Assembly (NCBI RefSeq): GCF_008642355.1
Contig: NZ_CP029193.1
Location: forward strand, 6,410,001-6,474,000
Source: Streptomyces venezuelae
GTDB lineage: Bacteria > Actinomycetota > Actinomycetes > Streptomycetales > Streptomycetaceae
Length of the DNA stretch: 64,000 bases
Direction: 5' to 3'
In this document: one piece after another, positions 7,980-36,833 of the stretch
Layout of the letters: every line of letters starts with the position of its first letter
How positions within the stretch are numbered: the stretch's first letter is position 1
Program-made: the position numbers and the translations under genes
The notes under the pieces: model-generated
What the model was told of the DNA's origin: nothing
Databases searched by the model: none
Seen by the model: the letters and a program-made list of their open reading frames with translations, nothing else

Positions 7980-8201
7980 ATGAGCAATCCGTTCGACAAC
8001 GAGGACGGAAGCTACTTCGTGCTCACCAACGAGGAGGGGCAGCACTCCCTCTGGCCTGCCTTCGCCGACATCCCGGCCGGCTGGTCGACGGTCTTCGGCG
8101 CGGCCGACCGGGCGGCGTGCCTGGCGTACGTGGACGCGAACTGGACTGATCTGCGCCCCAGTTCACTCATCGAGGCCACCGGGAACGGCGGCAAGCAGTG
8201 A
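7980..8201 (+). CDS. MbtH-like NRPS accessory protein
   Basis: A 73-residue protein, MSNPFDNEDGSYFVLTNEEGQHSLWP. It has the family signature NxEGQHSLWP..IPAGW and a second conserved stretch, CLAYVDANWTDLRPSSL. MbtH proteins bind adenylation domains and are needed for their folding or activity, so this one should serve the NRPS and/or stand-alone A protein downstream. GAGG lies 5 bases before the ATG. The stop overlaps the next gene's GTG (GTGA at 8198-8201), so it opens the biosynthetic operon. Confidence 0.95.
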   Translation: MSNPFDNEDGSYFVLTNEEGQHSLWPAFADIPAGWSTVFGAADRAACLAYVDANWTDLRPSSLIEATGNGGKQ

Positions 8202-9502
8202 CGGGGAAGGCGGCTCGGCCCATGACGGCACAGACAACGGCGGACGTGGTCGGAGTCGGCTTCGGCCCCTCCAACCTGGCACTGGCGATCGCGCTCCAGG
8301 ACATCACCGGGCCCGCCGCGGGAGCGCCGGACGTCAGCATGAAGTTCTACGAGCGGCAGCCCCGGTTCGGCTGGCACCGCGGCATGCTGATGGAAGACGC
8401 GACGATGCAGGTCTCTTTCCTCAAGGACCTTGCGACCATGCGTGACGCGACGAGCCGGTACACGTTTGTCTCCTACCTCCAGGAGAAGGGGCGGGTCGCC
8501 GAGTTCATCAACAGCAAGACCCTGTACCCACTGCGCGTGGAGTTCCACGACTACCTGGAATGGGCGGCCCTGGAATTCCGGTCGTACGTCTCGTACGGCA
8601 CCGAGATCACCGCCGTCCGGCCGGTGGTCGAGGGCGGGGCCGTGGAATACGTCGACGTGGTGGCCCGCGATGCATTCAATGGCCACGAGACCGTCCAGCG
8701 TGCCCGCAACGTCGTGATCGGCACAGGGCTCACCCCGCGGCTCCCTGCGGGTATCGAGGAATCCGCGCGTATTTGGCACAGCTCGCAATTGATGCACCGG
8801 ATCGGCGGCGTCACCAGTGCCCCGCGCAATGTCGTCGTCGTCGGATCCGGCCAGAGTGCCGCCGAGGCCGCCGACTACATGCACCGCACCTTCTCCGACG
8901 CCCAGGTGCACACGGTGCTCTCGCGCTACGGCTACAGCGTCGCCGACGACAGCCCCTACGCGAACGGCATCTTCGACCCGGTGGCGGTCGACCGGTTCTA
9001 CGACTCACCCGCCGACGAGAAGCGGCGCCTCCTCGACTACCACGCGAACACCAACTACTCGGTGGTCGACCTCGACGTGTCGCAGGACCTGTACCGCAGG
9101 AGCTACCAGGAAAGAGTCCTCGGCAAGCAGCGGCTGCGCATGCTCAACACCTCGCGCGTCACCGCCGTCGACGAACACGAGGACGGCGTACGGGTCGTGG
9201 TCGAGTCGACGGCGTCCGGCACGGCGCAGACCATCGACGCGGACCTGATCGTCTTCGCCACCGGCTACCGGCCCAGCGACCCGGCGACCCTGCTCCAGGA
9301 CCTGCTGCATGAGTGCAAGCGGGACGAGGAGGGGCGGCTCGCGGTGGGGCGCGACTACCGGGTGATCACGTCGGATGCGGTGCGCTGCGGGATCTACGTC
9401 CAGGGCGCCAGCACCGAACACTCCCACGGCCTGTCGGCCGGCCTCCTGTCCAACACCGCTGTCCGGTCCGGCGAGATCGCCCAGTCCATCCTCAAGAGGT
9501 AA
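8198..9502 (+). CDS. L-ornithine N5-monooxygenase (KtzI-type)
   Basis: A 434-residue flavoprotein of the N-hydroxylating monooxygenase family. The FAD motif VGVGFGPSNLALAIAL is near residue 20, the NADPH motif VVVVGSGQSAAEAADYM near residue 212, and the C-terminal DADLIVFATGYRPSDP motif near residue 350. Such enzymes convert L-ornithine (or lysine) to the N-hydroxy amino acid. The very next gene is a piperazate synthase homologue, so N5-hydroxyornithine for piperazic acid is the most likely product, rather than a siderophore hydroxamate. The GTG at 8198 overlaps the MbtH stop; an in-frame ATG at 8222 is an alternative start. Confidence 0.9.
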   Translation: MTGKAARPMTAQTTADVVGVGFGPSNLALAIALQDITGPAAGAPDVSMKFYERQPRFGWHRGMLMEDATMQVSFLKDLATMRDATSRYTFVSYLQEKGRVAEFINSKTLYPLRVEFHDYLEWAALEFRSYVSYGTEITAVRPVVEGGAVEYVDVVARDAFNGHETVQRARNVVIGTGLTPRLPAGIEESARIWHSSQLMHRIGGVTSAPRNVVVVGSGQSAAEAADYMHRTFSDAQVHTVLSRYGYSVADDSPYANGIFDPVAVDRFYDSPADEKRRLLDYHANTNYSVVDLDVSQDLYRRSYQERVLGKQRLRMLNTSRVTAVDEHEDGVRVVVESTASGTAQTIDADLIVFATGYRPSDPATLLQDLLHECKRDEEGRLAVGRDYRVITSDAVRCGIYVQGASTEHSHGLSAGLLSNTAVRSGEIAQSILKR

Positions 9503-9504
9503 CC

Positions 9505-10185
9505 ATGTACGTCCCTACGATCTACCAGGCGGAAGACCGGGCCTGGCTTCGCCGCATCGTCGAGCAGTACCCCCTCGCGACGCTGGTCTCCAACGGCCCC
9601 CGGGTGCCGTACGCCACGCACCTGCCGATGATCTTCAACCCCGACACCCCCGCGGGCGACGCCGGTCCGGAGGGCGTGACCCTGCTCGGCCACCTGAACC
9701 GGGCGAACGCCCACTGGGACTCGCTCACCGACGGCGGGGACGCCCAGCTGATCTTCACCGGCCCGCACGGCTACGTCACGCCCGCGGTGTACGAGTCGAC
9801 GCCGGCGGCGCCCACCTGGAACTTCGTCTCCGTGCACCTCCAGGGAAAAGTGCGGCCGATCACCGACTTCGAGGAGACGCTCCGGGTCGTCCAGCTGACG
9901 GTCCAGGCGTACGAGAAGGACTTCGGCGACGGCTGGGAGATGGACACCTCGCTGGACTACTTCCGGGCCATCGGCCCCGCCGTGGGAGCGTTCCGCTTCG
10001 AGGTGGAGTCGGCGGACGGCATGTTCAAGCTCAGCCAGGAGCAGAGCCCCGAGATCCGCAAGAGGGTCACCGACCGCTTCGGCACGGACGGCACCTGGCG
10101 CGGCAGGGAACTCGCCGCCCTCATGCGCGAGTTCGACCACGCCGGCCGCACTCGAGAGTCGACCGCCCCCACCGGAGGAGCCTGA
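9505..10185 (+). CDS. Piperazate synthase (KtzT-type, PaiB fold)
   Basis: A 226-residue protein of the PaiB/FMN-binding split-barrel family: MYVPTIYQAEDRAWLRRIVEQYPLATLVSNG..ATHLPMIF..GHLNRANAHW..TWNFVSVHLQGKVR. Annotation pipelines usually label such proteins 'FMN-binding negative transcriptional regulator'. KtzT of kutzneride biosynthesis has this fold, uses haem, and makes the N-N bond of piperazic acid from N5-hydroxyornithine. The gene follows the N5-monooxygenase by 2 bases and precedes NRPS genes, which is the diagnostic piperazate arrangement. Fold and context are visible; the haem-dependent activity is inferred from the pair. Confidence 0.9.
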   Translation: MYVPTIYQAEDRAWLRRIVEQYPLATLVSNGPRVPYATHLPMIFNPDTPAGDAGPEGVTLLGHLNRANAHWDSLTDGGDAQLIFTGPHGYVTPAVYESTPAAPTWNFVSVHLQGKVRPITDFEETLRVVQLTVQAYEKDFGDGWEMDTSLDYFRAIGPAVGAFRFEVESADGMFKLSQEQSPEIRKRVTDRFGTDGTWRGRELAALMREFDHAGRTRESTAPTGGA

Positions 10186-10187
10186 CC

Positions 10188-11045
10188 ATGCCCGCCACCG
10201 ACGTGACCCCCGCCGTGCGCCGCGACCGGCGCCGGGAGGCGACCCCGCGCCGTCTCCTGATGTGCCGCCCCAGCCACTACGGCGTCGTCTACTCCATCAA
10301 CCCGTGGATGAACCCGGAGAAGCCCTGCGACCGCGATCTGGCACTCGCGCAGTGGGAGCAGCTCCATGACCTCTACACCTCGCTCGGCCACACCGTGGAC
10401 GTGATCGACCCGGTACCCGGCCTGCCCGACATGGTGTTCGCCGCCAATGGCGCGACCGTGGTGGACGGCAAGGTCCTCGGCGCCCGATTCCGGCACGCGG
10501 AGCGGACGGCCGAGGGGCCCGCCTATCTCTCCTGGTTCCGGGCACGGGGCTTCGACGACTTCCTGTGGCCGGAGTTCATCAACGAGGGCGAGGGCGACTA
10601 CCTGCTCGTCGGCCGACGCATCCTGGCGGGCACCGGTTTCCGTACCGACCCGCGCTCGCACGCCGAGGCGCAGGAGTTCTTCGGGCTCCCGGTGACCGGA
10701 CTGACCCTGGTCAACCCGCGTCACTACCACCTCGACACCGCCCTTTCGGTGCTCTCCGACGACGAGATCATGTATTACCCGGAGGCCTTCTCGCCGGGCA
10801 GCCGTGCCGTGCTCGGGGAAATGTTCCCGGACGCCGTTCTGGCGTCCGCGCAGGACGCATCCGTCTTCGGACTCAACGCGTTCAGCGACGGCTACAACGT
10901 GATTCTGCCCGAGGCCGCCACCGGTCTCGCCGCGGAGCTGCGCGAACGCGGTTTCAACCCCATCGGCGTGAACCTCTCCGAACTGCTCAAGGCAGGGGGC
11001 AGCGCCAAGTGCTGCACCCTGGAACTGCGTTCCCCCCGAGGCTGA
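10188..11045 (+). CDS. DDAH / arginine-dihydrolase-like amidinohydrolase
   Basis: A 285-residue guanidino-modifying enzyme with a GGAGG 8 bases before its ATG. Recognisable segments are PDMVFAANGATVVDGKVL (near residue 82), the catalytic-His region NPRHYHLDTALSVL (near 178) and the nucleophilic Cys near the end (SAKCCTLEL). This is the dimethylargininase/amidinotransferase superfamily. In a piperazate operon it could turn arginine into citrulline, or directly into ornithine as the related arginine dihydrolases do, and so feed the N5-monooxygenase. It lies 2 bases after the piperazate synthase gene. The family is clear; the ornithine-supply role is inferred. Confidence 0.75.
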   Translation: MPATDVTPAVRRDRRREATPRRLLMCRPSHYGVVYSINPWMNPEKPCDRDLALAQWEQLHDLYTSLGHTVDVIDPVPGLPDMVFAANGATVVDGKVLGARFRHAERTAEGPAYLSWFRARGFDDFLWPEFINEGEGDYLLVGRRILAGTGFRTDPRSHAEAQEFFGLPVTGLTLVNPRHYHLDTALSVLSDDEIMYYPEAFSPGSRAVLGEMFPDAVLASAQDASVFGLNAFSDGYNVILPEAATGLAAELRERGFNPIGVNLSELLKAGGSAKCCTLELRSPRG

Positions 11046-11047
11046 CG

Positions 11048-12232
11048 ATGGACTACGACGTTGTGGTGGTCGGCGCGCGCTGCGCGGGGGCGTCGACCGC
11101 TCTGCTGCTGGCGAGACAGGGCCGGCGCGTGCTCCTCGTCGACAAGGCCCCGTTCCCTTCGGACACCATGTCCACGCTCTACATCCACCAGCCGGGGGTC
11201 ACGAGACTCGCGCGCTGGGGCGTGCTCGACGACGTCGTGGCCTCCGGCTGCCCGCCCCTGGACACCATCAGCCATGACATCGACGGCCTCAGCCTGACCT
11301 CGGCGGTGCCGGCGGTCGACGGGGTCTCCGCCGCGTACGCGCCGAGGCGGTACGTCCTCGACGAGCTGCTGGTGCGGGCCGCCGTGGCGGCCGGGGCGGA
11401 GTTCACGGACCGTGCGCAGGTGCGGGAACTGGTCCGGCGTGACGACCGGGTCACCGGAGTCCGCCTGCGGACCGGGGACGCGACGGCCACCGTGTCGGCG
11501 GGACTGGTCATCGGGGCCGACGGCATGCGCTCGAAGATCGCCGACCTGGTCGGCGCGCCCGTCCTGCGGTCGGCGCCGCGGGCGAGCTGCGTGTACTACA
11601 CGTTCTGGCGCGGCCTGCGCACCGGGTTCGGGTTCCACGAACGACCGGGACGCTGGATCGCCCGCATCCCGACCCACGACGACCTCACCGTCGTGGCCGC
11701 GTACATGCCGCAGGCCGAATTCGCCGAGGCGCGCCGCGACCCCGAGGAGGCGTACCTGTCGGCGGTCGAGTCGACCGCGCCGGACCTGTACGAACAGATG
11801 ATGGCCGCCGAGCGGGCCGACCGGCTGCGGGGCACGGGCGACCAGCGGAACTACTTTCGTACGGCGCACGGGCCCGGCTGGGCCCTGGTGGGCGACGCGG
11901 CCCACCATCTCGACACGATCAGTGCCCGCGGAATCACCAACGCGTTCATTCAGGCGGATCTGATCGCCGATGCCATGTCCGGGGTCCCGACGGAGGACGC
12001 GGCGTCGGTCGACGGAGCGACGTCAGGATTCGCCCGGACCATGGCGGACACCCTCGAAGGGCCGTACAAGAGCACGCTCGAACTCGCGAAGCTCCGTCCG
12101 ACGAAGACGAGACTGCGCATGCTGCACGCCGTGGCCGGCTCGCCCGAACTCACGAGCCGCTATTTCGCCATGGTCTCGGGCGTCATCGGGATGCGCGAAT
12201 TCATGACGGCCGACGTCGTGGACCTGTTGTAG
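11048..12232 (+). CDS. FAD-dependent monooxygenase/oxidoreductase (PHBH-like)
   Basis: A 394-residue flavoprotein. The N-terminal dinucleotide motif is DVVVVGARCAGASTALLLARQGRRVLLVDK. The GADGMRSKIADLVGA segment lies near residue 158, and the second FAD motif GWALVGDAAHHLDTISARGITNAFIQADLIADAM near residue 278. This is the p-hydroxybenzoate-hydroxylase/geranylgeranyl-reductase-like group, which includes hydroxylases, dehydrogenases and halogenase-like enzymes. It sits between the piperazate cassette and the NRPS. A tailoring step is likely, for example hydroxylation or desaturation of piperazate, or N-oxidation of a warhead amide. The reaction cannot be decided by eye. Confidence 0.75.
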   Translation: MDYDVVVVGARCAGASTALLLARQGRRVLLVDKAPFPSDTMSTLYIHQPGVTRLARWGVLDDVVASGCPPLDTISHDIDGLSLTSAVPAVDGVSAAYAPRRYVLDELLVRAAVAAGAEFTDRAQVRELVRRDDRVTGVRLRTGDATATVSAGLVIGADGMRSKIADLVGAPVLRSAPRASCVYYTFWRGLRTGFGFHERPGRWIARIPTHDDLTVVAAYMPQAEFAEARRDPEEAYLSAVESTAPDLYEQMMAAERADRLRGTGDQRNYFRTAHGPGWALVGDAAHHLDTISARGITNAFIQADLIADAMSGVPTEDAASVDGATSGFARTMADTLEGPYKSTLELAKLRPTKTRLRMLHAVAGSPELTSRYFAMVSGVIGMREFMTADVVDLL

Positions 12233-12309
12233 TCCGCTCTCCACCGACCCCGCCGTTCCCGTAGTCCGCCGGCAGTGAGTCCGCTGCCCGCCGTAAGTAA
12301 GGTTGAGCA

Positions 12310-15300
12310 TTGATCCCGTTGTCTTTCGCGCAGCGTCGGTTGTGGTTCATTCACCAGCTGGAAGGGCTGTCGTCGACGTACAACATTCCCCTGGTGCTGC
12401 GACTGACCGGGGGCCTCGACGCTCGGGCGCTGGGTGCGGCCCTGTCCGCCGTCGTGGACCGGCACGAGAGCCTGCGGACGGTGTTCCCGGCCGTGCGGGG
12501 AGTGGCGGAACAGCGCGTCCTGGCAGCCGCCGACGCGGAGTTCGGCTGGGAGGTCGTCGACGCCTCGGGGTGGCCGGCGGACGCACTGGACGACGCCGTC
12601 GCGAGGACGGCGTGGTACGAGTTCGACCTGAGCGCCGAGATCCCGTTCCGCGCGCGGCTGTTCAGGGTCGCCGACGACGAGCATCTGATGGTGCTCGTGA
12701 TGCATCACATCGCGTCGGACGGGTTGTCGCTCGCGCCGCTCCTGCGCGACATCGAGGTGGCGTACGCCGCGTGCGTCGCCGGTGAGGCCCCCGGCTGGGC
12801 CCCGCTGCCGCTGCACTACAGCGAATACACGCTCCGCCAGCTCGACACGCTCGGGGACGAGTCCGACCCCGACAGCGCGCTCAGCCGTCACCTGCGGTAC
12901 TGGGAGGAGGCGCTCGCCGGCTTCGAGGGGCGGCTGGAGCTGCCGACGGACCGGCCGTACCCGGCGGTGGCCGATCACCGCGGCAGCCGGATCCCGGTGG
13001 AGTGGCCCGCGTCGCTCCAGGAACAGGTGCGGAAGGTGGCGCGGGAGAACCGGTCCACCGGCTTCATGGTGGTCTCGGCGGCGCTCTCCCTGCTGCTGTC
13101 CGAGCTGAGCGGCAGCCCGGACGTGGCGTTCGGGGTCCCGACCACGGGCAGGCGCGACGCCGATCTCGCCGACCTCGTGGGCTTCTTCGCCAACACACTG
13201 GTCCTCAGGGCGGACATGGCAGGTGAGTTGACGGGACGTCAGCTCCTGGCGCAGGTGCGGAAGCGCGTCCTCGACGCGTCGGCGCACCAGGACGCCCCGT
13301 TCGACGCGCTGGTCGACCTGATCAATCCCACCCGTTCACAGACGCACCACCCGCTGGTCCAGGTCATGCTCGGCTGGCAGAACAACATCGCCGCCGAGCT
13401 GACGCTGCCGGGCGTACGGGCCGACATCGTGCCCACCACGTCCCGCGCGGCCCGTATGGACCTGACGTTCAGCCTGCGCGAGCGGTACACCGGGTCCGGC
13501 GAACCGGCGGGCATCGGCGGCGTGGTCGAGTACCGCACCGACGTCTACGACGCGTCGACCGTCGAGTCGATGGTGGCCCGATTCCAGCGGATCCTCACCG
13601 CGATGGTCGCCGACATGGACCGGCCGGTCCTCTCCATCGACGTACTCGACGACGACGAGCACGCGCACCTGGACCGCCTGGGCAACCGCGCCGTCCTGTC
13701 GGACCAGGCCGACGGCGCGTCCATACCCGGGCTCTTCGCGGCCCAGGCGGCGCGGACACCGGACGCCGCGGCCCTGGTGTTCCGGAACCGCACCTGGACG
13801 TACCGGGAACTCGACGAGGCGTCGACGCGCCTGGCACACCTGCTGACCGGCCGCGGCGTGGGCGCGGGGGACAACGTCGCCCTGCTGCTCCCGCGCTCCG
13901 CCGAGACCGTGGTCGCCGTCCTCGCCGTGCTGAAGCTGGGCGCGACGTACGTCCCGGTCGACGTCAAGCACCCCGACGAGCGGGTGGCGTTCATCCTGGG
14001 CGACGCGGCTCCGGTGGCGGCCGTGACCACGTCCTCGCTGGCGCACCGGATCGACGGGTTCGACGTCACGGTGGTCGACGTGGCCGACCCCGGCCTCGCG
14101 GCGCAGCCCGTCACGGCCCCGGCCCTCCCGGACGCGGGCCGGACCGCCTACATCATCTACACCTCAGGCACCACCGGCGTGCCCAAGGGCGTCGCGGTCA
14201 CCCACGCGAGCGTCACACGCCTGTTCACCTCGACGGCCCCGGGGTTCGTACCGTCCCCGGACCACGTCTGGTCGCTGTTCCACTCGTACGCGTTCGACGT
14301 GTCCGTCTGGGAGATGTGGGGCGCGCTGCTGCACGGCGGACGCCTCGTCGTCGTCCCCGAGGACGTGGTCCGGTCCGCCCATGACTTCCGGCAGCTGCTC
14401 ATCGACGAGCGCGTCACCGTCCTCAGCCAGACACCGTCGGCCTTCTACGCCCTTCAGGCTGCCGACATGCAACGGCAGCCCGGGGACGGGCTCGACGCGC
14501 TGGAGGCCGTGGTCTTCGCCGGAGAGGCCCTGGAGCCGTCCAAGCTGCGGGCGTGGCTGGAGCGGCGCGAGACCTGGCCGCACCTGATCAACATGTACGG
14601 CACGACGGAGACGACCGTCCACGCGTCCTTCCGCGGCATCGTCGCCGCGGACCTCGACAGCCATGTGAGCCCCGTCGGCGTGCCCCTCGCCGACCTGGCC
14701 TTCTTCGTGCTGGACGCGGGGCTGTGCCGGGTGCCGGTCGGCGTCGTCGGTGAGCTCTACGTGGCGGGCCCCGGCGTCGGCCTCGGCTACCTGGGGCGCG
14801 GTGGGCTGACGGCGTCACGGTTCGTGGCCTGCCCGTTCGGCCCCGCGGGGGCGCGGATGTACCGCACGGGCGACCTGGTGCGGTGGAACCGCGAGGGCGA
14901 GCTGGAGTACGTGGGCCGCTCGGACGACCAGGTGAAGATCCGCGGTTTCCGCGTGGAGCCGGGCGAGGTCGAGGCCGCGCTGGCCGCGGTGCCCGGGGTG
15001 GCGCGGGCCGCCGTGCTGGTGCGCTCGTCCGAGGCGGGCAAGCAGCTGGTGGGCTACGTGGTGCCCGCCGACGCCGCGGCGGGTGTGGACGGCGCCGCGG
15101 TGCGTGGCGAGGTGGCCGGGCACCTGCCCGAGTACATGGTCCCCGCGGTGGTCATGGTCGTCGACGATTTGCGGCTGACGGTCAACGGCAAGCTGGACAA
15201 GCGGGCCCTGCCGGAACCGGAGTTCACCGGCGGGGCCTACCGGGCCCCCTCGTCGCCGGTGGAGGAGATCCTGGCGGGAATCTTCGCGCGGGTCCTCGGG

Positions 15301-18300
15301 CTGCCGCAGGTCGGCGTGGACGACCCGTTCTTCGACCTCGGCGGCAACTCGCTGGCGGCGATGCGGGTGATCGCGGCCGTGCGGGAGTCCTTCGGCTCCG
15401 ACATCGGGGTCCGCGCGCTGTGGGAGGCCCCGTCGGTGGCGGGGTTCGCCCGGCTGGTGGGCAGCCCGGCCGACAGCGGCGCGGAATGGGTGCCCGTGGC
15501 GCGTCCGGAGCGGTTGCCGCTGTCGTACGCGCAGCGCCGCCTGTGGTACATCGACCAGCTGGAGGGGGCGTCGTCGACGTACAACATCCCCCTGGTGTCG
15601 CGGCTGACCGGCGAGCTGGACGTCACGGCCCTGGGCGCGGCGGTCGCCGATGTCGTGGCACGGCACGAGAGCCTGCGTACCGTCTTCCCGGCCGTGGACG
15701 GCGTACCGGAGCAGCGTGTCCTGGACGTGGCCGCGGCGGACGTCGGCTGGGAAGTCGTCGACGCCGCCGCGTGGACACCGGCGCGGCTCGCCGACGCAGT
15801 CGCCGAGCGCGGCCGACACACCTTCGACCTGGCCGCCGAAGCGCCCTTCCGGGCGACGCTCTTCGTCGTGTCGCCCGCGGAACACCGGCTGGTGCTGGTC
15901 ATGCACCACATCGCGGTCGACGGGTGGTCGCTGGCGCCCCTGCTGCGCGACCTGTGGACCGCCTACCGGGCGCGCACCGAAGGACACGCGCCCTCCTGGT
16001 CGCCGCTGCCCGTCCAGTACGCCGACCACACGCTCCGGCAGTACGCGCTGCTGGGCGACGAAGCGGACACCAACAGTGCGCTCGGCCGACAGGCGCAGTA
16101 CTGGGAGCAGGCACTGGAAGGCCTCCCCGGCAGGCTGGAACTCCCCACGGACCGGCCGTATCCGGCGGAGGCGGGGCGGCACGGCGGCCGCGTCGCCGTC
16201 GAGTTGCCCGCGGACTTCCACGCCCTGGTGCAGCGCGTCGCGCGGGAACGCGATGCCACGACGTTCATGGTGATGTCGGCGGCGCTCTCGGTGCTGCTGT
16301 CCCGCCTGAGCGGCAGCGCGGACGTGGCGTTCGGGGTGCCGACGGCGGGCCGGGGACGGACCGAGCTCGACGACGTGGTCGGCTTCTTCGTCAACACCCT
16401 GGTGCTGCGCACCCAGGTCACCGGCGAGCAGAGCTTCGACGAACTGCTCGGGCAGGTGCGGGAGCGGAGCATGGACGCGTTCGCGCACCAGGACGTGCCC
16501 TTCGACGCGCTCGTGGAACGGCTCAACCCGGTCCGGACGCAGGCCCACCACCCCCTGGTGCAGGTGCTGTTCGGCTGGCAGACCGACACGGTCCCCGACA
16601 TCGCGGTGCCGGGACTGGACATGGAGACGGCATCGGTCGACATCGGGGCCGCCCGCATGGACCTGGCGTTCAGCCTCCGTGAGCGGTTCACGGAGAACGG
16701 CCGGCCCGCCGGGATCAGCGGGATCGTCGAGTACCGCACGGACATCTTCGACGCCGGGACCGTGGAACGCATGACTGCACGCTGGCAGCGGCTGCTGACC
16801 GCCATGGCCGCGGAGCCCGACCGCCCGCTGGCCTCGCTCGACGTGCTGGACGAGGAGGAGCGGACCCGGCTGGACGTCCTCGGCAACCGGTCGGTGCTGT
16901 CGGAGCCGTACGACCCCGCGACCGTGCCGGAGCTGTTCGCCCGCCAGGTGTCGCGGACACCGGGCGCCGTGGCGATGGTGTTCGAGGGCCGGTCGTGGAC
17001 GTACCGGGAGCTGGACGAGGCATCGACGCGCCTGGCACACCTGCTGGCCGGGCGCGGCGTGCGCGCCGGAGACGCGGTGGCGCTCCTGCTGCCGCGATCG
17101 GAGCACACCGTCACGGCGGTGCTCGCGGTGCTGAAGCTCGGCGCCGCCTATGTGCCGATCGACGTGAACCACCCCGACGAGCGGGTGGCGTTCGTGCTGG
17201 AGGACGCCGAGCCGGTGGCGGTCGTCACCGTCCGGGAGCTCGCGGAGCGGGCCGGTGCGGACGGGACGACGGTCGTGGACGTCGAGGACCCGGCCCTCGC
17301 CGGGCAGCCCACCGCCGCCCTGCCGCACTTCTCCGTGGACCGGACCGCCTACGTCATCTACACCTCGGGCACGACCGGCACCCCCAAGGGAGTCGCCGTC
17401 ACCCACCGCGGCATCGCGGACCTCATCGTCACGCACCTCCAGCGGCTGGCCGAGTCCGGCGCCCCCGGAGCCGCCCCCCTGGCGCCCCACGACCACGTGT
17501 GGACGCTCTTCCATTCCTACGCGTTCGACTTCGCGGTGTGGGAGATGTGCGGTGCGCTGCTGCACGGCGGGCGCCTGGTCGTGGTCCCCGAGGAGGTCGT
17601 GTACTCGCCCTCCGACTTCCACGACCTGCTCGTCGCCGAGCAGGTCGTGGTGCTGACGCAGACGCCGTCCGCACTGGCACGGCTCTCCCCGGAGGGACTG
17701 ACCTCGGTCGCGGTGCTCCTGGTGGGCGGCGAGGCGTGCCCGGCCGAGCTGACCGAACGCTGGGCCCCCGGACGGGCGATGATCAACGCCTACGGCCCGA
17801 CCGAGTGCACCGTCTACGCGTCGATGAGCAGGCCGCTGACCGCGGACGGAGCCGTGCCGATCGGCGCCGCGGGCTCGGGCACCGCGCTCTTCGTCCTCGA
17901 CGGCGGACTGCGCCGGGTGCCGGTGGGCGTCGCCGGTGAGCTGTACGTCGCGGGGCACGGTGTGGCGCGCGGCTATGTGCGCAGGGCCGGCCTGACGGCG
18001 TCGCGGTTCGTGGCGTGCCCGTTCGGTCCTCCCGGTTCGCGGATGTACCGCACCGGCGACCTGGTGCGGTGGAACGCCGACGGTGAGCTGGAATACCTCG
18101 GGCGCGCCGACGACCAGGTGAAGATCCGCGGGTACCGGGTCGAGACCGGTGAGATCGAGTCGGTGCTGCGAGCGGCCCCCGGCGTGGCGCAGGCCGCGGT
18201 CGTCGTCCGGGAGGACCGGCCGGGCCACCGCCGACTGGTCGGCTACGTCGTCGCCGACGCCGATGGAGCGGGCACACCGGACGGTGCCCGGCTGCGTTGC

Positions 18301-28570: not shown

Positions 28571-28661
28571 CCTGCACGGCGACAACAAGTTTCCCTTCGG
28601 GCCCGCACACACCGCACGCGGCCGTGCCGGCGCCCGACACCCGAGTGGATAGCGAAGCAAC

Positions 28662-28922
28662 ATGAACAAGCAGCAGCTGACCGACACCGTCATCGCCTTC
28701 TGGGAGCGGGCCACCGGAGAAGAGGGCCTCACGCCCGAGGACAACTTCTTCGACCTGGGCGGCGAGTCCCTCGTCGCCGCGAAGATCCTCGCCCTGGTCG
28801 AGCGCGAGTACGGCCTGGAGGCGGAACTGCACCTGATATTCGACAACCCCACCATCGAGGAGTTCGTGGACGCCGTCGACGAGGAGCTGTCCGCCAAGGC
28901 ACAGCAAGGGACGAACGCATGA
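28662..28922 (+). CDS. Stand-alone peptidyl/acyl carrier protein
   Basis: An 86-residue carrier protein (MNKQQLTDTVIAFWERATGEEGLTPEDNFFDLGGESLVAAKIL). The phosphopantetheine Ser is in LGGESL, near residue 36. The rest (VEREYGLEAELHLIFDNPTIEEFVDAV) is a normal four-helix carrier. It overlaps the following stand-alone adenylation gene (ATGA at 28919-28922), so the two form a loading pair. It should carry one residue, or the acylated first residue, to the C domain that opens the large NRPS. Confidence 0.93.
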   Translation: MNKQQLTDTVIAFWERATGEEGLTPEDNFFDLGGESLVAAKILALVEREYGLEAELHLIFDNPTIEEFVDAVDEELSAKAQQGTNA

Positions 28923-30499
28923 CCACGCAGGAACGGAAGTCTCTGTGGGGCGGCCCGGCGACGCCGGACTGCTTCCTGACCGCATTCGCCCGCCGCGTCA
29001 CCGAACACCCGGACCGTACGGCGGTCGTCGACGCCGACCGCTCCTACACGTATGCGGAGCTGGCCGCCTGGGCCCAGGCGGTCTCGGCCGACCTCGCGAC
29101 GGCCGGCGTGGGCGTGGGCGACCGGGTCGCGGTCTCCCGCCCGCGCGGCGCGGGCGCCGTCGCCGCGCTCTTCGGAGTGGTGCTGCGCGGCGCCACGTAC
29201 GTCCCGCTGGACCCCGAGTACCCCGTCGAACGCCTGCAGTTCATGATCGACGACTGCGCGCCGCGCGCCGTCATCACCACCGACGACACCCGCGTGCGCT
29301 ACGACGGCCCCCTGGTGGACATCGGCCGGGCCCCCGCCGCGCCCGGGACCCCGGACCTGCGCCCGGTCGACTGCGACCCCACGCTGCCCGTGTACATCAT
29401 CTACACCTCGGGGTCGACCGGCTGGCCCAAGGGCGTGGCCCTCGGCCACCGCTGCATCGACACGATGGCCGAGTGGCAGGCGTCCCACTCGCCGCGCCCC
29501 GACCTGCGCACCGCGCAGTTCGCCCCGCTGAACTTCGACGTCTCGTTCCAGGAGATCCTGGGCACGCTGTGCGGCGGCGGCACGCTGGCGGTCATGCCGG
29601 AGGAGCTGCGCCGCGAGCCGGCGCGGCTGCTGCGCTGGCTGGCCGAACACCGCGTCGAGCGGCTGTTCCTGCCGTTCGTCGCCCTGCAGATGCTGGCGGT
29701 GACGGCACGTCCGGAGACGCTCGCCGAGCTGTCCCTGGTCGAGGTCAACACCGCCGGCGAGCAGGTCGTCTGCTCGGAGGACATCAGGGCGATGTTCGCC
29801 CGGCTGCCCGGCTGCCGCCTGGTCAACCACTACGGGCAGAGCGAGTCCGCCATGGTGACCTCGCACATCCTGGGCCCCGACCCCTACGCCTGGCCCCATC
29901 TGCCGCCGGTCGGCGTCCCCCTGCCGGGGTGCGAGCTGCTCATCGACCCGGAGAACCCGGAAGACCCCCACATCGGCGAACTCCTCGTGACGGGGCACCC
30001 GCTGTCGGAGGGATACCTGGGCCGCCCGGAGCTGACGGCCGAGCGCTACGTCACCATCCCGACCTCACCGGCCGGGCACACCCGCGCCTTCCGCACCGGC
30101 GACCTGGTCGAACTCACCGACGACGGTGTGCGCTTCCTCTCCCGCGTGGACAGCCAGACCAAGATCCGCGGCATCCGCGTCGACCTCCTGGAAGTCGACG
30201 CGCAACTGCTCGCGGACCCCGACATCGCGGCCGCCGCGACGGTCATGGTGACGACCGGGGCGGGCCACGCCGTCCTGCGCGCCGCGGTCGTCCCCCGCGA
30301 GGGCTGCGCGGGGCCGGCCGAGGCCGACGCGCTGGAACGGCTGCGCAAGGTCCTGCCGGACGCCTCGATCCCGGCCTCGGTGACGGTACTGCCCGAACTG
30401 CCGAGGACGCCCAGCGGGAAGATCGACCGCGACGCCGTCGCCACGCTGATCAGCGAGGACCGCAGCAGGCGCCGACGCGAGCGGGGCCGCCGCGCATGA
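28919..30499 (+). CDS. Stand-alone adenylation protein with proline-like specificity code
   Basis: A 526-residue NRPS A domain with core motifs YIIYTSGSTGWPKG (near 160), FDVSFQEILGTLCGGG, NHYGQSES, FRTGDLVELTDDG, and the catalytic Lys in LPRTPSGKIDRDAV near the end. Aligned to GrsA, the pocket reads D-V-Q-F-N-A-H-M-V. This is close to the prolyl code DVQ(L/F)IAHVV and to stand-alone L-prolyl-AMP ligases, which also share the NFDVSFQEI stretch. It probably loads a cyclic imino acid (proline, pipecolate or piperazate) on the adjacent carrier protein. The Asn in place of Ile at position 299 is unusual and might accommodate the second ring nitrogen of piperazate; that is speculation. Confidence 0.88.
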   Translation: MTTQERKSLWGGPATPDCFLTAFARRVTEHPDRTAVVDADRSYTYAELAAWAQAVSADLATAGVGVGDRVAVSRPRGAGAVAALFGVVLRGATYVPLDPEYPVERLQFMIDDCAPRAVITTDDTRVRYDGPLVDIGRAPAAPGTPDLRPVDCDPTLPVYIIYTSGSTGWPKGVALGHRCIDTMAEWQASHSPRPDLRTAQFAPLNFDVSFQEILGTLCGGGTLAVMPEELRREPARLLRWLAEHRVERLFLPFVALQMLAVTARPETLAELSLVEVNTAGEQVVCSEDIRAMFARLPGCRLVNHYGQSESAMVTSHILGPDPYAWPHLPPVGVPLPGCELLIDPENPEDPHIGELLVTGHPLSEGYLGRPELTAERYVTIPTSPAGHTRAFRTGDLVELTDDGVRFLSRVDSQTKIRGIRVDLLEVDAQLLADPDIAAAATVMVTTGAGHAVLRAAVVPREGCAGPAEADALERLRKVLPDASIPASVTVLPELPRTPSGKIDRDAVATLISEDRSRRRRERGRRA

Positions 30500-32349
30500 C
30501 CACGATCCTGCACGAGAGGCCCGCGGACGCGGGCCAGTACGCACTGTGGGCCGAAGCCACCATCGACCCGTCCATCAGCGGCGGCGGCTACTTCGTGGCG
30601 ACCTTCCACGGGGCGGTCGACGCCCACCACCTGGAGGCCGCCGCACGAGCCGTGCTGCACCGGCACGAACCGCTGCGGTCGGTACTGCGCCTGGTCGACG
30701 GCCAGTTGCGGCAGTGCGTCCTGCCGGCCGAGGAGGCCTGCGACTTCGAGCACGGCGACCTCCCTTGCGAGGACGGCGCCGAGCGCGCCGCCGTCCGTGC
30801 CTGGCGCGAGCGGCCCGAACAGCACCGACACTGGGACCTGGCCACGGAGGCGCCCATCCGGTTCCGGCTCCTCAGGCACGCCCCCGACCGCTGCTCGGTC
30901 GTGTTCGAGGCCCATCACGCCGGATTCGACGGGCGCAGCAAGTTCCTCGTGGCCCGCGACTTCTCCGCCTGCCTCGGGGACCTCCGGGCGGGGCGGGCCG
31001 TGCGCCCGACGCCGCTGGCCGCGCCCGACACCCCGGTGGCCCCGAGGGAGGTGACCGAGGAGGCCATCGAGTTCTGGCGGACCGCCGTCGACAGGGCCGA
31101 GCCGATGGCGCTGCCCGAAGGCGGACGCCTGGGGCAGCGGACGGTCACCGCGTCGCCGACGATCGAACTGGACCCGTCCGCGGTCGCCGCCCTCCGTACG
31201 AAGGCACAGGCGCTGGAGGTGAGCACCTTCACCATGCTCATGGCGGCGCTCACCCGCCAACTGGCCGTCTACGGCAACACCGAGTCGCTGCTGGCCCTGG
31301 CCTCCGACGTGAGCGACGAGCACACCGGCCACGTCGCCGGGCTCCAGATCAACGTGGTCCCCGTGGCCCTGGAGACGGCCCGGAGCGCCTCGACCGAGCA
31401 GTCCGTGGCCACCGCGCGCCGGGCGCTGACCCAACTGGCGCGCAACCGCCGCGTCCCCTTCGTCGACCTGGTCGCCGGTGTGCCCGGCAAGCCGCTGGCC
31501 CGGCTCAGCACCGAACTCGGCCTGTCCTTCCCCCGGCCGCCGGCCGGCCTGGACCTGGACGTCCCGGGCCTGCGCTCCGCCTGGGACTTCTTCACGCCGA
31601 ACACCAACGCGGCCCTGGCCAGGACCCTGCAGATCCGGGCGGACTGGCCGCGGTGCCGGGTGCGCCTCGACTACCGCCAGGACCTCATGGGCGCAGCGGA
31701 GGCCGAGCAGCTCCTGGCCGACTTCCGCACCGCCGTCTCCGACCTCGCCGCCGACCGCACGACCTCCTCGGTCGCCCCGGCACGCGCGGACCGCCCGGCC
31801 CCCGCGGCCGGCGGATCCCCGTACCTCCGCGGCGACGTCCGCGCGGGGACCGTGCACGACGACGACGCTCCCCAGCCGCCCACGCTGGCACCCGCGGAGG
31901 GCGTCGCGTTCACGGTCCACGGCCCGTCGGGACAGCCGCTGCCGCGATCCATCGCGGGTACGGTGCGGGTCCTGCTGCCCGACGGCCGCGAGATCCCCAC
32001 CGAGGACTGCGGATACGTCGCCGCCGACGGCCGCGTGCGGCTCCTCGGACCGCGGGACGGCCGGTGGATACGCACCCGCAGCCTGATCGACGCCTCCGCC
32101 GTCGCCCGTGTCGCCCGCACCCACCCCTGGGTCCGGGAAGCGGAGGTGCGCATGGAACAGGCCCGGACGGCGACCGCGGTGCTCACCGTGACCGGCCCGT
32201 CCACGGGCGCCCCGAGCGCGCGCGACATCCGTGCCCATCTGCGCACCTGGCTGCACGGCGGTGACCTGCCCGGACGCATCAGAGTCACCGTTTCCGACCC
32301 CGATACGAGCACCGACCCCAGCACCGACGCTGACAGTGAAGAAGGATGA
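30496..32349 (+). CDS. Stand-alone condensation protein with a degenerate adenylation-type tail
   Basis: A 617-residue protein. Residues 1-430 are a C domain (AGQYALWAEATIDPSISGGGYF; active-site HHAGFDG near residue 138; later DFFTPNTNAALARTLQI). Residues ~470-600 look like a reduced C-terminal subdomain of an adenylation enzyme: GTVRVLLPDGREIP, GYVAADGRVRLLGPRDGRWI, then a segment like the post-hinge part of A domains (VARVARTHPWVREAEVRME). The A10 lysine region is absent, so adenylation is not expected. With an intact HHxxxDG it could join an acyl-CoA starter to the carrier-bound imino acid. Its start overlaps the A gene stop (ATGA). Confidence 0.8.
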   Translation: MTTILHERPADAGQYALWAEATIDPSISGGGYFVATFHGAVDAHHLEAAARAVLHRHEPLRSVLRLVDGQLRQCVLPAEEACDFEHGDLPCEDGAERAAVRAWRERPEQHRHWDLATEAPIRFRLLRHAPDRCSVVFEAHHAGFDGRSKFLVARDFSACLGDLRAGRAVRPTPLAAPDTPVAPREVTEEAIEFWRTAVDRAEPMALPEGGRLGQRTVTASPTIELDPSAVAALRTKAQALEVSTFTMLMAALTRQLAVYGNTESLLALASDVSDEHTGHVAGLQINVVPVALETARSASTEQSVATARRALTQLARNRRVPFVDLVAGVPGKPLARLSTELGLSFPRPPAGLDLDVPGLRSAWDFFTPNTNAALARTLQIRADWPRCRVRLDYRQDLMGAAEAEQLLADFRTAVSDLAADRTTSSVAPARADRPAPAAGGSPYLRGDVRAGTVHDDDAPQPPTLAPAEGVAFTVHGPSGQPLPRSIAGTVRVLLPDGREIPTEDCGYVAADGRVRLLGPRDGRWIRTRSLIDASAVARVARTHPWVREAEVRMEQARTATAVLTVTGPSTGAPSARDIRAHLRTWLHGGDLPGRIRVTVSDPDTSTDPSTDADSEEG

Positions 32350-32351
32350 CC

Positions 32352-33670: not shown

Positions 33671-33674
<4 letters not shown>
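32352..33674 (+). CDS. ccr: Crotonyl-CoA carboxylase/reductase homologue
   Basis: A 440-residue NADPH-dependent MDR-family enzyme. Typical CCR features are MPELAPDEVLVAVMAAAMNYNTIWSA (near residue 60), FNFLRHYGKQGGWAARHDQPYHVLGSDAAGVIV, the dinucleotide site GDVVLVWGAAGGLGGYAVQFVRNGG and FEHVGRETFGVSVFVARRGGTIVTCGSSTGYQH. CCRs reductively carboxylate enoyl-CoAs to alkylmalonyl-CoAs. Secondary-metabolic paralogues often take longer chains than crotonyl-CoA. With the epimerase and mutase of this cluster it should start an alkylmalonyl to alkylsuccinyl route. I prefer the ATG at 32352, with AAGAAGG 6 bases upstream; an ATG at 32346 overlaps the previous stop. Chain-length preference is not readable by eye. 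Confidence 0.92.
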
Positions 33675-34122
<448 letters not shown>

Positions 34123-34126
<4 letters not shown>

Positions 34127-34917
34127 CGGGGGAGCCGCTGCACGCCCTGCTGGAATCCGCCCGGCAGGGCAGCACCCGCGCGCTGGCCCGCCTCATGGGG
34201 CGTGCGGAGAACCATGACCTCGCGGCCGCCGACCTCGGCGCCCCGGGCGCGGCGGGTGCTGCCGGTGCGGCCTGCCCGGTCATCGGCCTGACCGGTCCGC
34301 CGGGTGTCGGCAAGTCGACGTTCGTCTCCTGCCTCGTCGCCGAGTACCGGCGGCGCGGGAAGCGGGTGGCGGTGCTCTGCTTCGACCCCTCGTCGCCGGT
34401 GACCGGCGGCGCGCTGCTCGGCGACCGCATCCGTATGCAGGCGCATGCGGACGACCCGGGGGTGTTCATCCGGTCGGCCTCCAGCCGGGGTCACCTCGGT
34501 GGCCTCTCGGCGACCGCCCGGCCCATGATCGCGGTCCTGTCCGCGGCCGGGTTCGACGTCATCCTGATCGAGACGGTCGGGGCCGGGCAGTCGGAGGTCG
34601 AGATCGCGTCGGTCGCCGACCGGACCGTCGTCGTCCTCGCCCCCGGCGCGGGCGACGGAATCCAGTTGGCCAAGGCCGGTGTGCTGGAGGTCGCCGACCT
34701 GTACGTCGTGAACAAGGCGGACCAGGACGGGGTCCACGGGCTGGTCCGCGAACTGCGTGCGATGGTCGCGCTGGGCACCCGGGACATCCCCGTGGTGACG
34801 ACCACGGCGAGTCGGGGCGAAGGGGCCGCGGAGGTCATCTCGGCCCTCGGCACCGAGAACCCGGCGGACGCGACGAATGCGCCGGACGCGCCGGGCGTGA
34901 CGAACTCGCCGGCATAG
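34123..34917 (+). CDS. MeaB/ArgK-type GTPase chaperone of the mutase
   Basis: A 264-residue G3E GTPase. The Walker A is VIGLTGPPGVGKSTFVSCL (near residue 60), with LCFDPSSPVTGGALLGDRIRM, SSRGHLGGLSATA, LIETVGAGQSEVEI and the guanine motif VVNKAD. MeaB proteins protect and reload B12 mutases. The last ~25 residues are a low-complexity NPADATNAPDAPGVTNSPA tail. The helical C-terminal dimerisation arm of typical ~330-residue MeaB proteins seems to be missing. The GTG start overlaps the B12-subunit stop (GTGA), showing that it serves this mutase. Confidence 0.9.
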
Positions 34918-34934
34918 GCGGGCTCTCCGGGGCG

Positions 34935-35510
34935 TCACTCCTCCGGGCGTACGTCCACGGACGACCGGGCTGACCGGGTCGCACCACCACTACCACCGTC
35001 GTCGTCGAGGAGGGGGAACAGCCGGGCGACCGCGGCCACGGGCCTCGCCCCCGCGACGGCCCGGTGGTCCCGGTCGCGATACGCGCCCACCAACAGCCTG
35101 ATGGAAGCGGCGAGTTCGGCCATCTCCGCCGGGGTGAGGTGGACCACGGCGCTGAACGACTCGTCGTGCTTCCAGTCGGCCGGCGCCCGGTCCCGGTGAC
35201 TCAGCCAGTGCTGGTAGCTCTCGTCCTCCAACCCCCGTGCCAGATCGTCGAACCGCTCCGGCGCGTTCTGGTCCGGCGGGGGCCCCGACTCCCACCTGAG
35301 CCGCCACGGCCGCGCCCGGCCGCCCTCCCGCGGAACCTCCTCGATGAGGCCGTGCCGGGCGAGTTGGCGCAGGTGGAAGGAGCAGAGGCCGGAGCTGTGG
35401 CCGAGGCGGGCGGCGGCCTGTGTGGACGTGACGGTGCCGAGCTCGGCCAGCAGGTCCAGCAGGGCGACGCGCACGGGATGGTCCGGTAGGGACTGTCGGG
35501 CACGGCTCAA
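34935..35510 (-). CDS. ArsR-like winged-helix regulator
   Basis: A ~191-residue regulator transcribed away from the deformylase gene. The DNA-binding domain (PVRVALLDLLAELGTVTSTQAAARLGHSSGLCSFHLRQLARHGLIEEV) is the ArsR/winged-helix pattern. The C-terminal part (YQHWLSHRDRAP..VHLTPAEMAELAASIRLLVGAYRDR) is common in Streptomyces paralogues with unknown ligands. I prefer the TTG at 35510, because GGGAG lies 6 bases upstream. A GTG at 35552 is in frame but has no ribosome site and would lie inside the operator. It is the only regulator gene inside the cluster, and may control itself, the deformylase, or both. Confidence 0.78.
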   Translation of the reverse strand: MSRARQSLPDHPVRVALLDLLAELGTVTSTQAAARLGHSSGLCSFHLRQLARHGLIEEVPREGGRARPWRLRWESGPPPDQNAPERFDDLARGLEDESYQHWLSHRDRAPADWKHDESFSAVVHLTPAEMAELAASIRLLVGAYRDRDHRAVAGARPVAAVARLFPLLDDDGGSGGATRSARSSVDVRPEE

Positions 35511-35551
35511 CGTGTGCTCCCTGGCGGGTGTTTGACGGTCGTTGTCGCTCA

Positions 35552-35578
35552 CTTTGCAAAGGCTGCTACTTTGGAAAG
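35552..35578. promoter_or_regulatory. Twin CTTTGCAAAG-type operators between regulator and deformylase
   Basis: A perfect 10-bp palindrome CTTTGCAAAG (35552-35561) and a near-perfect copy CTTTGGAAAG (35569-35578) lie 17 bp apart centre to centre, in the divergent promoter region. Each has the size of a winged-helix half-turn site. They are upstream of both the ArsR-like gene and the deformylase, so the encoded regulator is the natural candidate to bind here. Confidence 0.65.
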
Positions 35579-35598
35579 CGTTCGGTCAAGCTGGGCAG

Positions 35599-35631
35599 GC
35601 GCCGGCCGGGGAGCACGTCCCCGGCCGGCGC
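35599..35631 (+). other. Perfect 14-bp stem-loop in the deformylase 5' leader
   Basis: The left arm GCGCCGGCCGGGGA (35599-35612) pairs perfectly with TCCCCGGCCGGCGC (35618-35631) around a 5-base loop, GCACG. It lies between the operators and the deformylase start, so it should be in the 5' untranslated RNA. No U-run follows. It could attenuate transcription, insulate the gene from upstream transcription, or stabilise the mRNA. Confidence 0.7.
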
Positions 35632-35659
35632 GTGCATGTGCGGAAGGCGTGGAAACTCC

Positions 35660-36319
35660 ATGGCAGTTCGGAACGGTGACATCTCGCAGGACCGCCGGGT
35701 GCGGGTACAGGGGGAGCCGGTCGACTCCTACCCGCAGCTCGCCCCGGAGGTCGAACGGGGTGCGGTGCACCGCATCACCGTCGTCGGGGAGGAGATCCTG
35801 AACCGGCGCTGCCGGGAGGTCACCGAGTTCGGCACGCCCGAGCTCTCGCAGTTGATCGACGACATGTTCGCCACGAACCAGGTGGCCAACGGCGCGGGCC
35901 TAGCGGCCAACCAGATCGACGTGGACCTTCAGTTGTTCGTGTGGGACATCGTGGACGACTGGGGAGTGCGCCATGTCGGGCACATCGCCAATCCGGTCCT
36001 GGACGAGATCGCGACCGAGGATCGCGTGCTGGTCGAGGAGTCGGAGGGCTGCCTGTCCGTGCCGGGTCCGTACCGCATGGTGCCCCGGCTCGACCGCGCG
36101 GTGGTGCGAGGCCGCGACAAGGACGGCAACCCTCTCGTGATCGAGGGCCGGGGCTACTTCGCCCGCTGCCTCCAGCACGAGACGGACCACCTGCACGGCC
36201 ACCTCTACCTGGACCGGCTCAGCAAGCGGGAACGGAAGTCCGCGCTGCGCGAGATGGAGGGCTCCAAGGAGGAGACGTTCGCCCGCCGCGCCGCCGCGGC
36301 CAAGAAGCTGGGCAAGTGA
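35660..36319 (+). CDS. def: Peptide deformylase, probable self-resistance copy
   Basis: A 219-residue deformylase with all three metal/active-site motifs: motif 1 GAGLAANQ (78-85), motif 2 EGCLS (129-133, metal Cys131) and motif 3 HETDH (173-177). It removes the formyl group from nascent proteins. An N-terminal extension of ~38 residues precedes the catalytic domain, as in one class of Streptomyces deformylases. The family GVG of motif 1 is GAG here, and the following strand (QLFVWDIVDDWGV) departs from the usual VFVYDCPDD. Deformylase is the bacterial target of actinonin. A divergent copy at the end of a cluster encoding an alkylsuccinyl-type pathway therefore suggests self-resistance (inference). 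A weak ribosome site precedes the ATG; an in-frame ATG at 35636 is possible. Confidence 0.92.
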   Translation: MAVRNGDISQDRRVRVQGEPVDSYPQLAPEVERGAVHRITVVGEEILNRRCREVTEFGTPELSQLIDDMFATNQVANGAGLAANQIDVDLQLFVWDIVDDWGVRHVGHIANPVLDEIATEDRVLVEESEGCLSVPGPYRMVPRLDRAVVRGRDKDGNPLVIEGRGYFARCLQHETDHLHGHLYLDRLSKRERKSALREMEGSKEETFARRAAAAKKLGK

Positions 36320-36359
36320 CGGCTTGCATGATCATCCGCGGGTGAGGTGAACTTGAGCC

Positions 36360-36800
36360 ATGCTGACGCGAATTGATCACATCGGGATCGCCTGCTTCGA
36401 CCTCGACAAGACCATCGAGTTCTACCGTGAGACGTACGGTTTCGAGGTCCTCCACATCGAGGCCAACGAGGAACAGGGCCTCCGGGAGGCGATGTTGAGG
36501 ATCAACGGGACGTCGGACGGCGGTATGAGTTGCCTCCAGCTCCTGGAGTCGACCCGCGAGGACTCCGTGGTGGGCAAGTGGCTGGCCAAGAACGGCGAGG
36601 GCGTCCACCACATCGCGTTCGGCACGGCGGACGTGGACGGCGACGCCGACGCCATCCGGGACAAGGGAATCCGGGTGCTCTACGACGAGCCGCGGATCGG
36701 GTCCATGGGGTCGCGGATCACCTTCCTGCATCCCAAGGACTGCCACGGGGTGCTGACCGAACTCGTCACGGCCGCGCCGTCGGACCGGGCCGGGCACTGA
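36360..36800 (+). CDS. Methylmalonyl/alkylmalonyl-CoA epimerase
   Basis: A 146-residue VOC-fold protein (MLTRIDHIGIACFDLDKTIEFYRETYGFEV..GEGVHHIAFGTADVDGDADAIRDKGIRVL..GSRITFLHPKDCHGVLTELV). This is a clear methylmalonyl-CoA epimerase with the His/Glu metal ligands in place (DHIG, HHIAFG, TELV). Epimerases supply the (R) isomer to B12 mutases, whereas CCR makes the (S) isomer, so it completes the CCR-epimerase-mutase route. It could instead be the housekeeping gene. It starts 40 bases after the deformylase stop with GAGGTGA upstream and is the last co-directional gene before the MurA block. Confidence 0.88.
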   Translation: MLTRIDHIGIACFDLDKTIEFYRETYGFEVLHIEANEEQGLREAMLRINGTSDGGMSCLQLLESTREDSVVGKWLAKNGEGVHHIAFGTADVDGDADAIRDKGIRVLYDEPRIGSMGSRITFLHPKDCHGVLTELVTAAPSDRAGH

Positions 36801-36813: not shown

Positions 36814-36833
36814 GACGGCGCTCCGCCGCCGTC
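36814..36833. terminator. Short bidirectional hairpin between convergent epimerase and murA genes
   Basis: GACGGCG (36814-36820) pairs with CGCCGTC (36827-36833) around a 6-base loop, in the 31-base gap between two convergent genes. Its arm touches the murA stop codon. It is a plausible but short terminator without a T-run. Confidence 0.45.

What the first reader, a model, noticed from the sequence alone, without database searches (positions are those of the whole stretch)
7980..36800. Candidate undescribed cluster: piperazate peptide with an alkylsuccinyl-type warhead and its own deformylase
One co-directional gene series combines a piperazate pair (N5-monooxygenase and KtzT-like synthase), a four-module NRPS with loading-type A/T/C proteins, a full CCR-epimerase-B12 mutase-MeaB route to alkylsuccinyl-CoA, and a divergent peptide deformylase. 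Actinonin and matlystatin carry alkylsuccinyl hydroxamate warheads made by an ethylmalonyl-CoA-type route; matlystatin also contains piperazate, and actinonin inhibits deformylase. Here the peptide is longer (four modules plus a loading residue, one D centre, TE release), so the product should be a new relative. I see no amidotransferase for a hydroxamate; the warhead end may be a carboxylate, or the FAD enzyme at 11048 may act on it.
Basis: partly seen in the sequence, partly recalled or inferred. Interest (0 to 1): 0.95.

Follow-up and report, generated by a model that had tools for sequence, protein, structure and literature searches.

The report
Lydiamycin antibiotic gene cluster
This stretch of a Streptomyces chromosome holds a close copy of the gene cluster for the known antibiotic lydiamycin A, and it is predicted to make the same kind of molecule, which would block the bacterial enzyme peptide deformylase; the cluster is therefore not undescribed.

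Summary
Window 7980-36800 has the gene set of the lydiamycin (lyd) cluster, whose product is known: a pentapeptide with piperazate and a 2-pentylsuccinyl carboxylate. Lydiamycin A inhibits peptide deformylase, and the cluster's own deformylase gives immunity (PMC12130866). All five A-domain codes equal those of genome G329, which encodes the deposited lyd proteins Lyd8 and, but for its start residue, Lyd2. Proteins match that genome at 59-92%. No AsnB- or AurF-type hydroxamate gene lies in the window, so the warhead end should be a carboxylate. The deformylase is not divergent (87% to Lyd2). Two things go beyond what I read in print: a dimethylargininase/arginine-dihydrolase-like gene between the piperazate and flavoprotein genes, and an ArsR-type regulator divergent to the deformylase. 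A homologue of that regulator lies beside 13 of 26 related Streptomyces deformylases against 0 of 30 housekeeping ones, but not beside the S. huiliensis lyd deformylase on its MeaB side.

The parts
7980..8201 (+). MbtH-like protein
   Evidence: Pfam MbtH 96.1 bits; no match on the G329 lyd stretches read
8222..9502 (+). ornithine N5-monooxygenase (KtzI type)
   Evidence: Pfam Lys_Orn_oxgnase 350.8 bits; 65% to the G329 lyd gene
9505..10185 (+). piperazate synthase (KtzT type)
   Evidence: Pfam FMN_bind_2 144 bits; 59% to the G329 lyd gene
10188..11045 (+). dimethylargininase/arginine-dihydrolase-like enzyme; role in ornithine supply inferred
   Evidence: NCBIfam NF045659 447.7 bits over cut-off 300; PDB matches only Sll1336 and Alr4995; second own copy at C1:2272588; not on the G329 lyd stretches read
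11048..12232 (+). FAD oxidoreductase; candidate for piperazate dehydrogenation (inferred)
   Evidence: Pfam FAD_binding_3; 80% to the G329 lyd gene; 75-91% relatives listed
12310..27138 (+). four-module NRPS, C-A-T, C-A-T-E, C-A-T, C-A-T-TE
   Evidence: Pfam, motifs; 81/78/81% to three G329 contig pieces; four A codes identical
27122..28570 (+). B12-dependent acyl-CoA mutase, large subunit
   Evidence: TIGR00641 469.3 bits; 92% to G329, best other own-genome mutases 43-44%
28662..28922 (+). free-standing PCP
   Evidence: Pfam PP-binding; 89% to G329
28919..30499 (+). free-standing A domain, predicted piperazate
   Evidence: Pfam AMP-binding; code DVQFNAHMV identical in G329, S. huiliensis, S. 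cacaoi and G472
30496..32349 (+). free-standing C protein
   Evidence: Pfam Condensation, HHAGFDG; 78% to Lyd8 record P0004
32346..33674 (+). crotonyl-CoA carboxylase/reductase type (CCR)
   Evidence: TIGR01751 536.8 bits; 91% to G329
33671..34126 (+). mutase B12-binding subunit
   Evidence: TIGR00640 158.5 bits; 82% to G329
34123..34917 (+). MeaB-type GTPase
   Evidence: TIGR00750 256.3 bits; 74% to G329
34935..35552 (-). HTH_20/ArsR-type regulator, divergent to the deformylase
   Evidence: Pfam HTH_20 38.7 bits; 73% to G329 beside its deformylase
35660..36319 (+). peptide deformylase, LydA/Lyd2 type (predicted self-immunity)
   Evidence: Pfam match, NCBIfam, 87% to Lyd2
36360..36800 (+). acylmalonyl-CoA epimerase
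   Evidence: TIGR03081 140.8 bits; 80% to S. huiliensis L006; no match on the G329 lyd stretches read

Best explanation
This is a lydiamycin biosynthetic gene cluster with the same gene set and the same A-domain codes as the known one, and it is predicted to make lydiamycin A or a close congener, which would inhibit peptide deformylase. Inferred route, by analogy with the published lyd, mat and act pathways: the CCR carboxylates 2-octenoyl-CoA to hexylmalonyl-CoA; the epimerase and the two-part B12 mutase, helped by MeaB, turn it into 2-pentylsuccinyl-CoA. KtzI- and KtzT-type enzymes make piperazate from ornithine, which the dimethylargininase-like enzyme may help to supply. The free-standing A and PCP load piperazate, the free-standing C protein acylates it with the pentylsuccinyl unit, and the four-module NRPS adds four residues (one epimerised) and cyclises by its TE. 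The FAD enzyme likely makes the dehydropiperazate. The second deformylase would keep translation going in the producer, probably under the ArsR-type regulator.
For: Shown: same genes as described for lyd; protein identities 59-92% to G329; G329 encodes the Lyd8 record letter for letter and Lyd2 in 205 of 206 residues, the difference being its start; 5 of 5 A-domain codes identical, each window A domain 84-88% identical to its counterpart and 34-77% to the others; mutase 92% to G329 but at most 44% to the other mutases of its own genome; no AsnB/AurF gene in the window; one loading residue plus four modules equals the published pentapeptide.
Against: No product was measured. MbtH, epimerase and the dimethylargininase-like gene were not found on the G329 lyd stretches read (20000 of 23513 bases of one contig were read), and about 960 of 4942 NRPS residues have no G329 counterpart in the stretches read. 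Gene order differs: in G329 the deformylase pair lies by the FAD gene and KtzI/KtzT by MeaB. The LuxR regulator and prenyltransferase gene drawn in the R. fascians cluster are not among the families found here. A preprint assigns lydiamycin in S. alboflavus to a cluster with PKS domains and a P450 (PMC11761653, passages), which does not fit this one.
Confidence: 0.88

Rival explanations
1. A new lydiamycin-like compound: same scaffold, but changed by tailoring, chain length or one residue, so that it counts as a new member of the class.
For: Protein identities are 59-92%, not 100%; an extra dimethylargininase-like gene is present; congeners beyond lydiamycins A-H are reported from R. fascians (PMC12130866).
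Against: All five A-domain codes are identical, and the extra gene has a primary-metabolism-like family and a second copy elsewhere in the genome.
Confidence: 0.15
2. A hydroxamate relative of actinonin and matlystatin: genes elsewhere in the genome amidate and N-oxygenate the warhead.
For: AsnB-type and AurF-type genes exist elsewhere in the genome.
Against: None of the 3 AsnB-type and 3 AurF-type matches lies in the window; in act and mat these genes lie in the cluster (PMC5719088, passages).
Confidence: 0.03
3. The FAD enzyme at 11048 N-hydroxylates an amide next to piperazate, instead of making dehydropiperazate.
For: FAD oxidoreductases Lun21 (400 aa) and PlyE are proposed to N-hydroxylate residues next to piperazate (PMC9866976, passages).
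Against: I did not compare with the Lun21 or PlyE sequences. Lydiamycin needs an oxidase for its dehydropiperazate, and I saw no other unassigned oxidase between 7980 and 36800.
Confidence: 0.25

Closest known systems
Lydiamycin (lyd) cluster: Streptomyces (OL452059; S. aureoverticillatus) and Rhodococcus fascians pFiD188
   Same: Gene set, A-domain codes (5 of 5 against G329), deformylase, no hydroxamate genes
   Different: Extra dimethylargininase-like gene; ArsR-type/deformylase pair placed between MeaB and epimerase; KtzI/KtzT at the front; no LuxR or prenyltransferase gene found
Matlystatin (mat) cluster, Actinomadura atramentaria
   Same: CCR, epimerase, two-part mutase, piperazate, free-standing C and A proteins (free-standing C 54% identical)
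   Different: mat has AsnB- and AurF-type hydroxamate genes (PMC5719088, passages), an NRPS/PKS hybrid and no deformylase gene in the cluster (PMC12130866)
Actinonin (act) cluster
   Same: CCR, epimerase and mutase for the alkylsuccinyl unit; deformylase is a target
   Different: Hydroxamate; no deformylase gene in the cluster (PMC12130866)

Membership tests
Lydiamycin (lyd) cluster | CCR, epimerase, two-part B12 mutase and MeaB | tested here: met
   NCBIfam; CCR 91%, mutase 92%, B12 82%, MeaB 74% to G329; epimerase 80% to S. huiliensis, not found on the G329 stretches read
Lydiamycin (lyd) cluster | KtzI/KtzT piperazate pair | tested here: met
   (65% and 59%)
Lydiamycin (lyd) cluster | Free-standing PCP, A and C proteins plus NRPS with the lyd A-domain codes | tested here: met
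   5 of 5 codes identical to G329; domain order
Lydiamycin (lyd) cluster | Cluster-borne deformylase of LydA/Lyd2 type | tested here: met
   87% to Lyd2
Lydiamycin (lyd) cluster | No AsnB- or AurF-type hydroxamate genes | tested here: met
   matches only outside the window
Lydiamycin (lyd) cluster | Produces lydiamycin A (m/z 664.3665) | not testable with these tools
   needs culture and LC-MS
Actinonin/matlystatin hydroxamate clusters | AsnB-like amidotransferase and AurF-like N-oxygenase in the cluster | tested here: not met
Arginine dihydrolase (ArgZ N-terminal type), gene 10188-11045 | Sequence membership | tested here: inconclusive
   The 6 PDB sequences matched are all Sll1336 or Alr4995 and the Asn of the PDMVFxAN stretch is kept; but NCBIfam names it dimethylargininase (447.7 over 300), and its arginine-dihydrolase model scores 192.8 under its 450 cut-off

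The most novel reading that the evidence does not exclude
The lyd clusters took their immunity gene from a genus-wide stock: an ArsR-type regulator/deformylase pair that stands in many Streptomyces genomes without lyd and acts as an inducible defence against natural deformylase inhibitors. This cluster has also recruited an arginine-to-ornithine enzyme to feed piperazate synthesis.
Probability: 0.35. Interest if true: 0.5.

Novelty: already known. Interest (0 to 1): 0.25.

Why it matters
It adds a further predicted producer of a published antimycobacterial deformylase inhibitor, on one unbroken contig with every gene open, and a further instance of a second copy of the target as self-protection. 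The side result is testable: an ArsR-type/deformylase pair stands in many Streptomyces genomes without the cluster, which would mean that tolerance to deformylase inhibitors is wider than the clusters that make them.

Tried and rejected
Hydroxamate product: rejected, because no AsnB- or AurF-type gene is in the window. Divergent deformylase: rejected. One residue as a resistance mark: the window deformylase has Tyr where E. coli has Arg in the alignment, but the 12 Streptomyces housekeeping deformylases that I printed, of 30, also have Tyr there, and only 5 of the 27 LydA-type ones do, the window's included; so it marks nothing by itself.

Window genome being G329 (S. aureoverticillatus by its Lyd8 record): rejected, because the lyd proteins differ by 8-41%. 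Other close copies in sampled genomes: 1 of the 391 other Streptomyces genomes has a full-length free-standing C homologue (G329; next best 31% identity; up to three candidates scored per genome), and 0 of 295 others in the relatives set at the cut-off used. The one genome-contig scan gave S. huiliensis and S. cacaoi on short contigs.

Residues were not predicted from the four NRPS codes; the argument rests on identity with the known cluster. By hand arithmetic (no call) m/z 664.3665 fits C31H49N7O9, which allows pentylsuccinate plus five residues, but not uniquely. No structure was predicted. Papers seen only in passages: PMC7272546, PMC7565604, PMC10884874, PMC12690207, PMC11761653. Searches for dimethylargininase in piperazate clusters and for allopeptimicin gave nothing I could use; the listings were not read further.
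Full report
WHAT IS THERE. Order on the plus strand: MbtH, ornithine N5-monooxygenase, KtzT-type, dimethylargininase/ArgZ-like, FAD oxidoreductase, four-module NRPS (4942 aa), mutase large subunit, PCP, A, C, CCR, B12 subunit, MeaB, deformylase, epimerase; an HTH_20/ArsR-type gene lies on the minus strand between MeaB and deformylase. The NRPS core motifs are intact: five C/E motifs HHxxxDG/A (a sixth pattern match at 2907 is chance, inside a C domain), four TSGTTGxPKG, four LGGxS, one GWSFG. The window is 6410001-6474000 of a single contig of 8,018,484 bases with five deformylase genes in all.

IT IS THE LYDIAMYCIN CLUSTER. A search for matlystatin, actinonin and gene cluster returned two papers. 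One, PMC12130866 (parts 1-4 of 7 read), describes the lyd cluster of R. fascians: NRPS proteins LydDHJKL, CCR LydM, epimerase LydP, mutase LydIN, MeaB-like LydO, KtzI/KtzT-like LydEF, a flavin oxidoreductase and deformylase LydA. The product is lydiamycin A, revised there to a 2-pentylsuccinyl carboxylate; it inhibits E. coli deformylase (IC50 6 uM). If the letters follow gene order (inference), the order D-P is that of the window, apart from the deformylase and the dimethylargininase-like gene. PMC9448795 (two passages) reports lydiamycin from an expressed Streptomyces cluster, OL452059. In the protein database the window's free-standing C protein matches record P0004 (named S. aureoverticillatus and Lyd8) at 78% and the R. 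fascians protein at 73%; its deformylase matches Lyd2 at 87%. Identities to it: mutase 92, CCR 91, PCP 89, deformylase 87, B12 subunit 82, A 81, FAD enzyme 80, C 78, MeaB 74, ArsR-type 73, KtzI 65, KtzT 59, NRPS 81/78/81% in three pieces. Not found on the G329 stretches read: MbtH, epimerase, dimethylargininase-like gene.

A-DOMAIN CODES. Nine-position codes, with GrsA as ruler (recalled sequence, which reproduced DAWTIAAIC): DVWSVAMVH, DFWTLGAVY, DVWTFGAVY, DVWNFGGFY and, free-standing, DVQFNAHMV; identical in window and reference, 5 of 5. Each window A domain is 84-88% identical to its counterpart and 34-77% to the others. The free-standing code does not discriminate, since the more distant locus G472 has it too; the four NRPS codes do. 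One loading residue plus four modules equals the published pentapeptide.

WARHEAD. PMC5719088 (passages) proposes CCR, epimerase and mutase for 2-pentylsuccinyl-CoA, then AsnB- and AurF-type enzymes for the hydroxamate. In this genome AsnB-type matches lie at 876169, 309306 and 3906842 and AurF-type at 624037, 5622248 and 5623370, none in the window. A carboxylate is predicted, as in lydiamycin.

IMMUNITY AND THE ArsR-TYPE PAIR. The other four deformylases of the genome are 52, 49, 30 and 30% identical to the cluster one. Deformylases of its type (E up to 1e-70) occur in 27 of 61 Streptomyces genomes, own included, although a full-length free-standing C homologue occurs in 2 of 392, own included. 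A homologue of the window's ArsR-type gene lies beside 13 of the 26 non-own deformylases of this type, against 0 of 30 housekeeping loci examined, own included, of 61 found. The regulator also stands beside the G329 lyd deformylase and the G472 one. Against a fixed pairing: 13 of the 26 lack it, and the S. huiliensis lyd contig (L006) has deformylase 197 bases after MeaB with no ArsR-type match. A search for ArsR, peptide deformylase and Streptomyces returned two papers, judged by title and abstract start only, neither on this pair. That the regulator controls the deformylase is inferred from the arrangement alone.

DIMETHYLARGININASE-LIKE GENE. G329 has a related stretch on another contig (C5), and the own genome a second copy over the curated cut-off at 2272588. 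The 6 PDB sequences matched come from two proteins, Sll1336 and Alr4995; that these are arginine dihydrolases (ArgZ/AgrE) is recalled. The NCBIfam model it passes is dimethylargininase. The ornithine-supply role stays open.

FLAVOPROTEIN. Relatives at 75-91% are listed from Streptomyces and Rhodococcus; several share strain name and contig length with the C or deformylase rows (NPDC059008, G45, NPDC004732, NPDC058284). The timing of piperazate dehydrogenation is stated as unknown in PMC12130866. That this enzyme does it is inference; N-hydroxylation remains possible (PMC9866976, passages).

VERDICT. What remains new is small: one more lyd locus on one unbroken contig, one extra gene, and the ArsR-type/deformylase neighbourhood. 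I cannot say whether this strain is among those of Fig. 1B of PMC12130866, whose list is in a supplement not open to me.

Noticed in passing
No multi-module NRPS was seen there; the product is unknown to me.
   Followed up: partly
36832-38361 (-): MurA/EPSP-synthase-type protein with an N-terminal helix-turn-helix domain, just right of the cluster.
   Followed up: no
L073 (G471) and L074 (G437): CCR genes 82% identical to the window's without the other lyd genes in the 20 kb read; possibly extender-unit CCRs of other clusters.
   Followed up: no
6444-7334 (+): Predicted protein of 296 aa just left of the cluster with no Pfam match.
   Followed up: no
L080-L105 (unnamed Streptomyces genomes): LydA-type deformylases in genomes without lyd fall into those with (13) and without (13) an adjacent ArsR-type gene; the two may be subfamilies.
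   Followed up: partly
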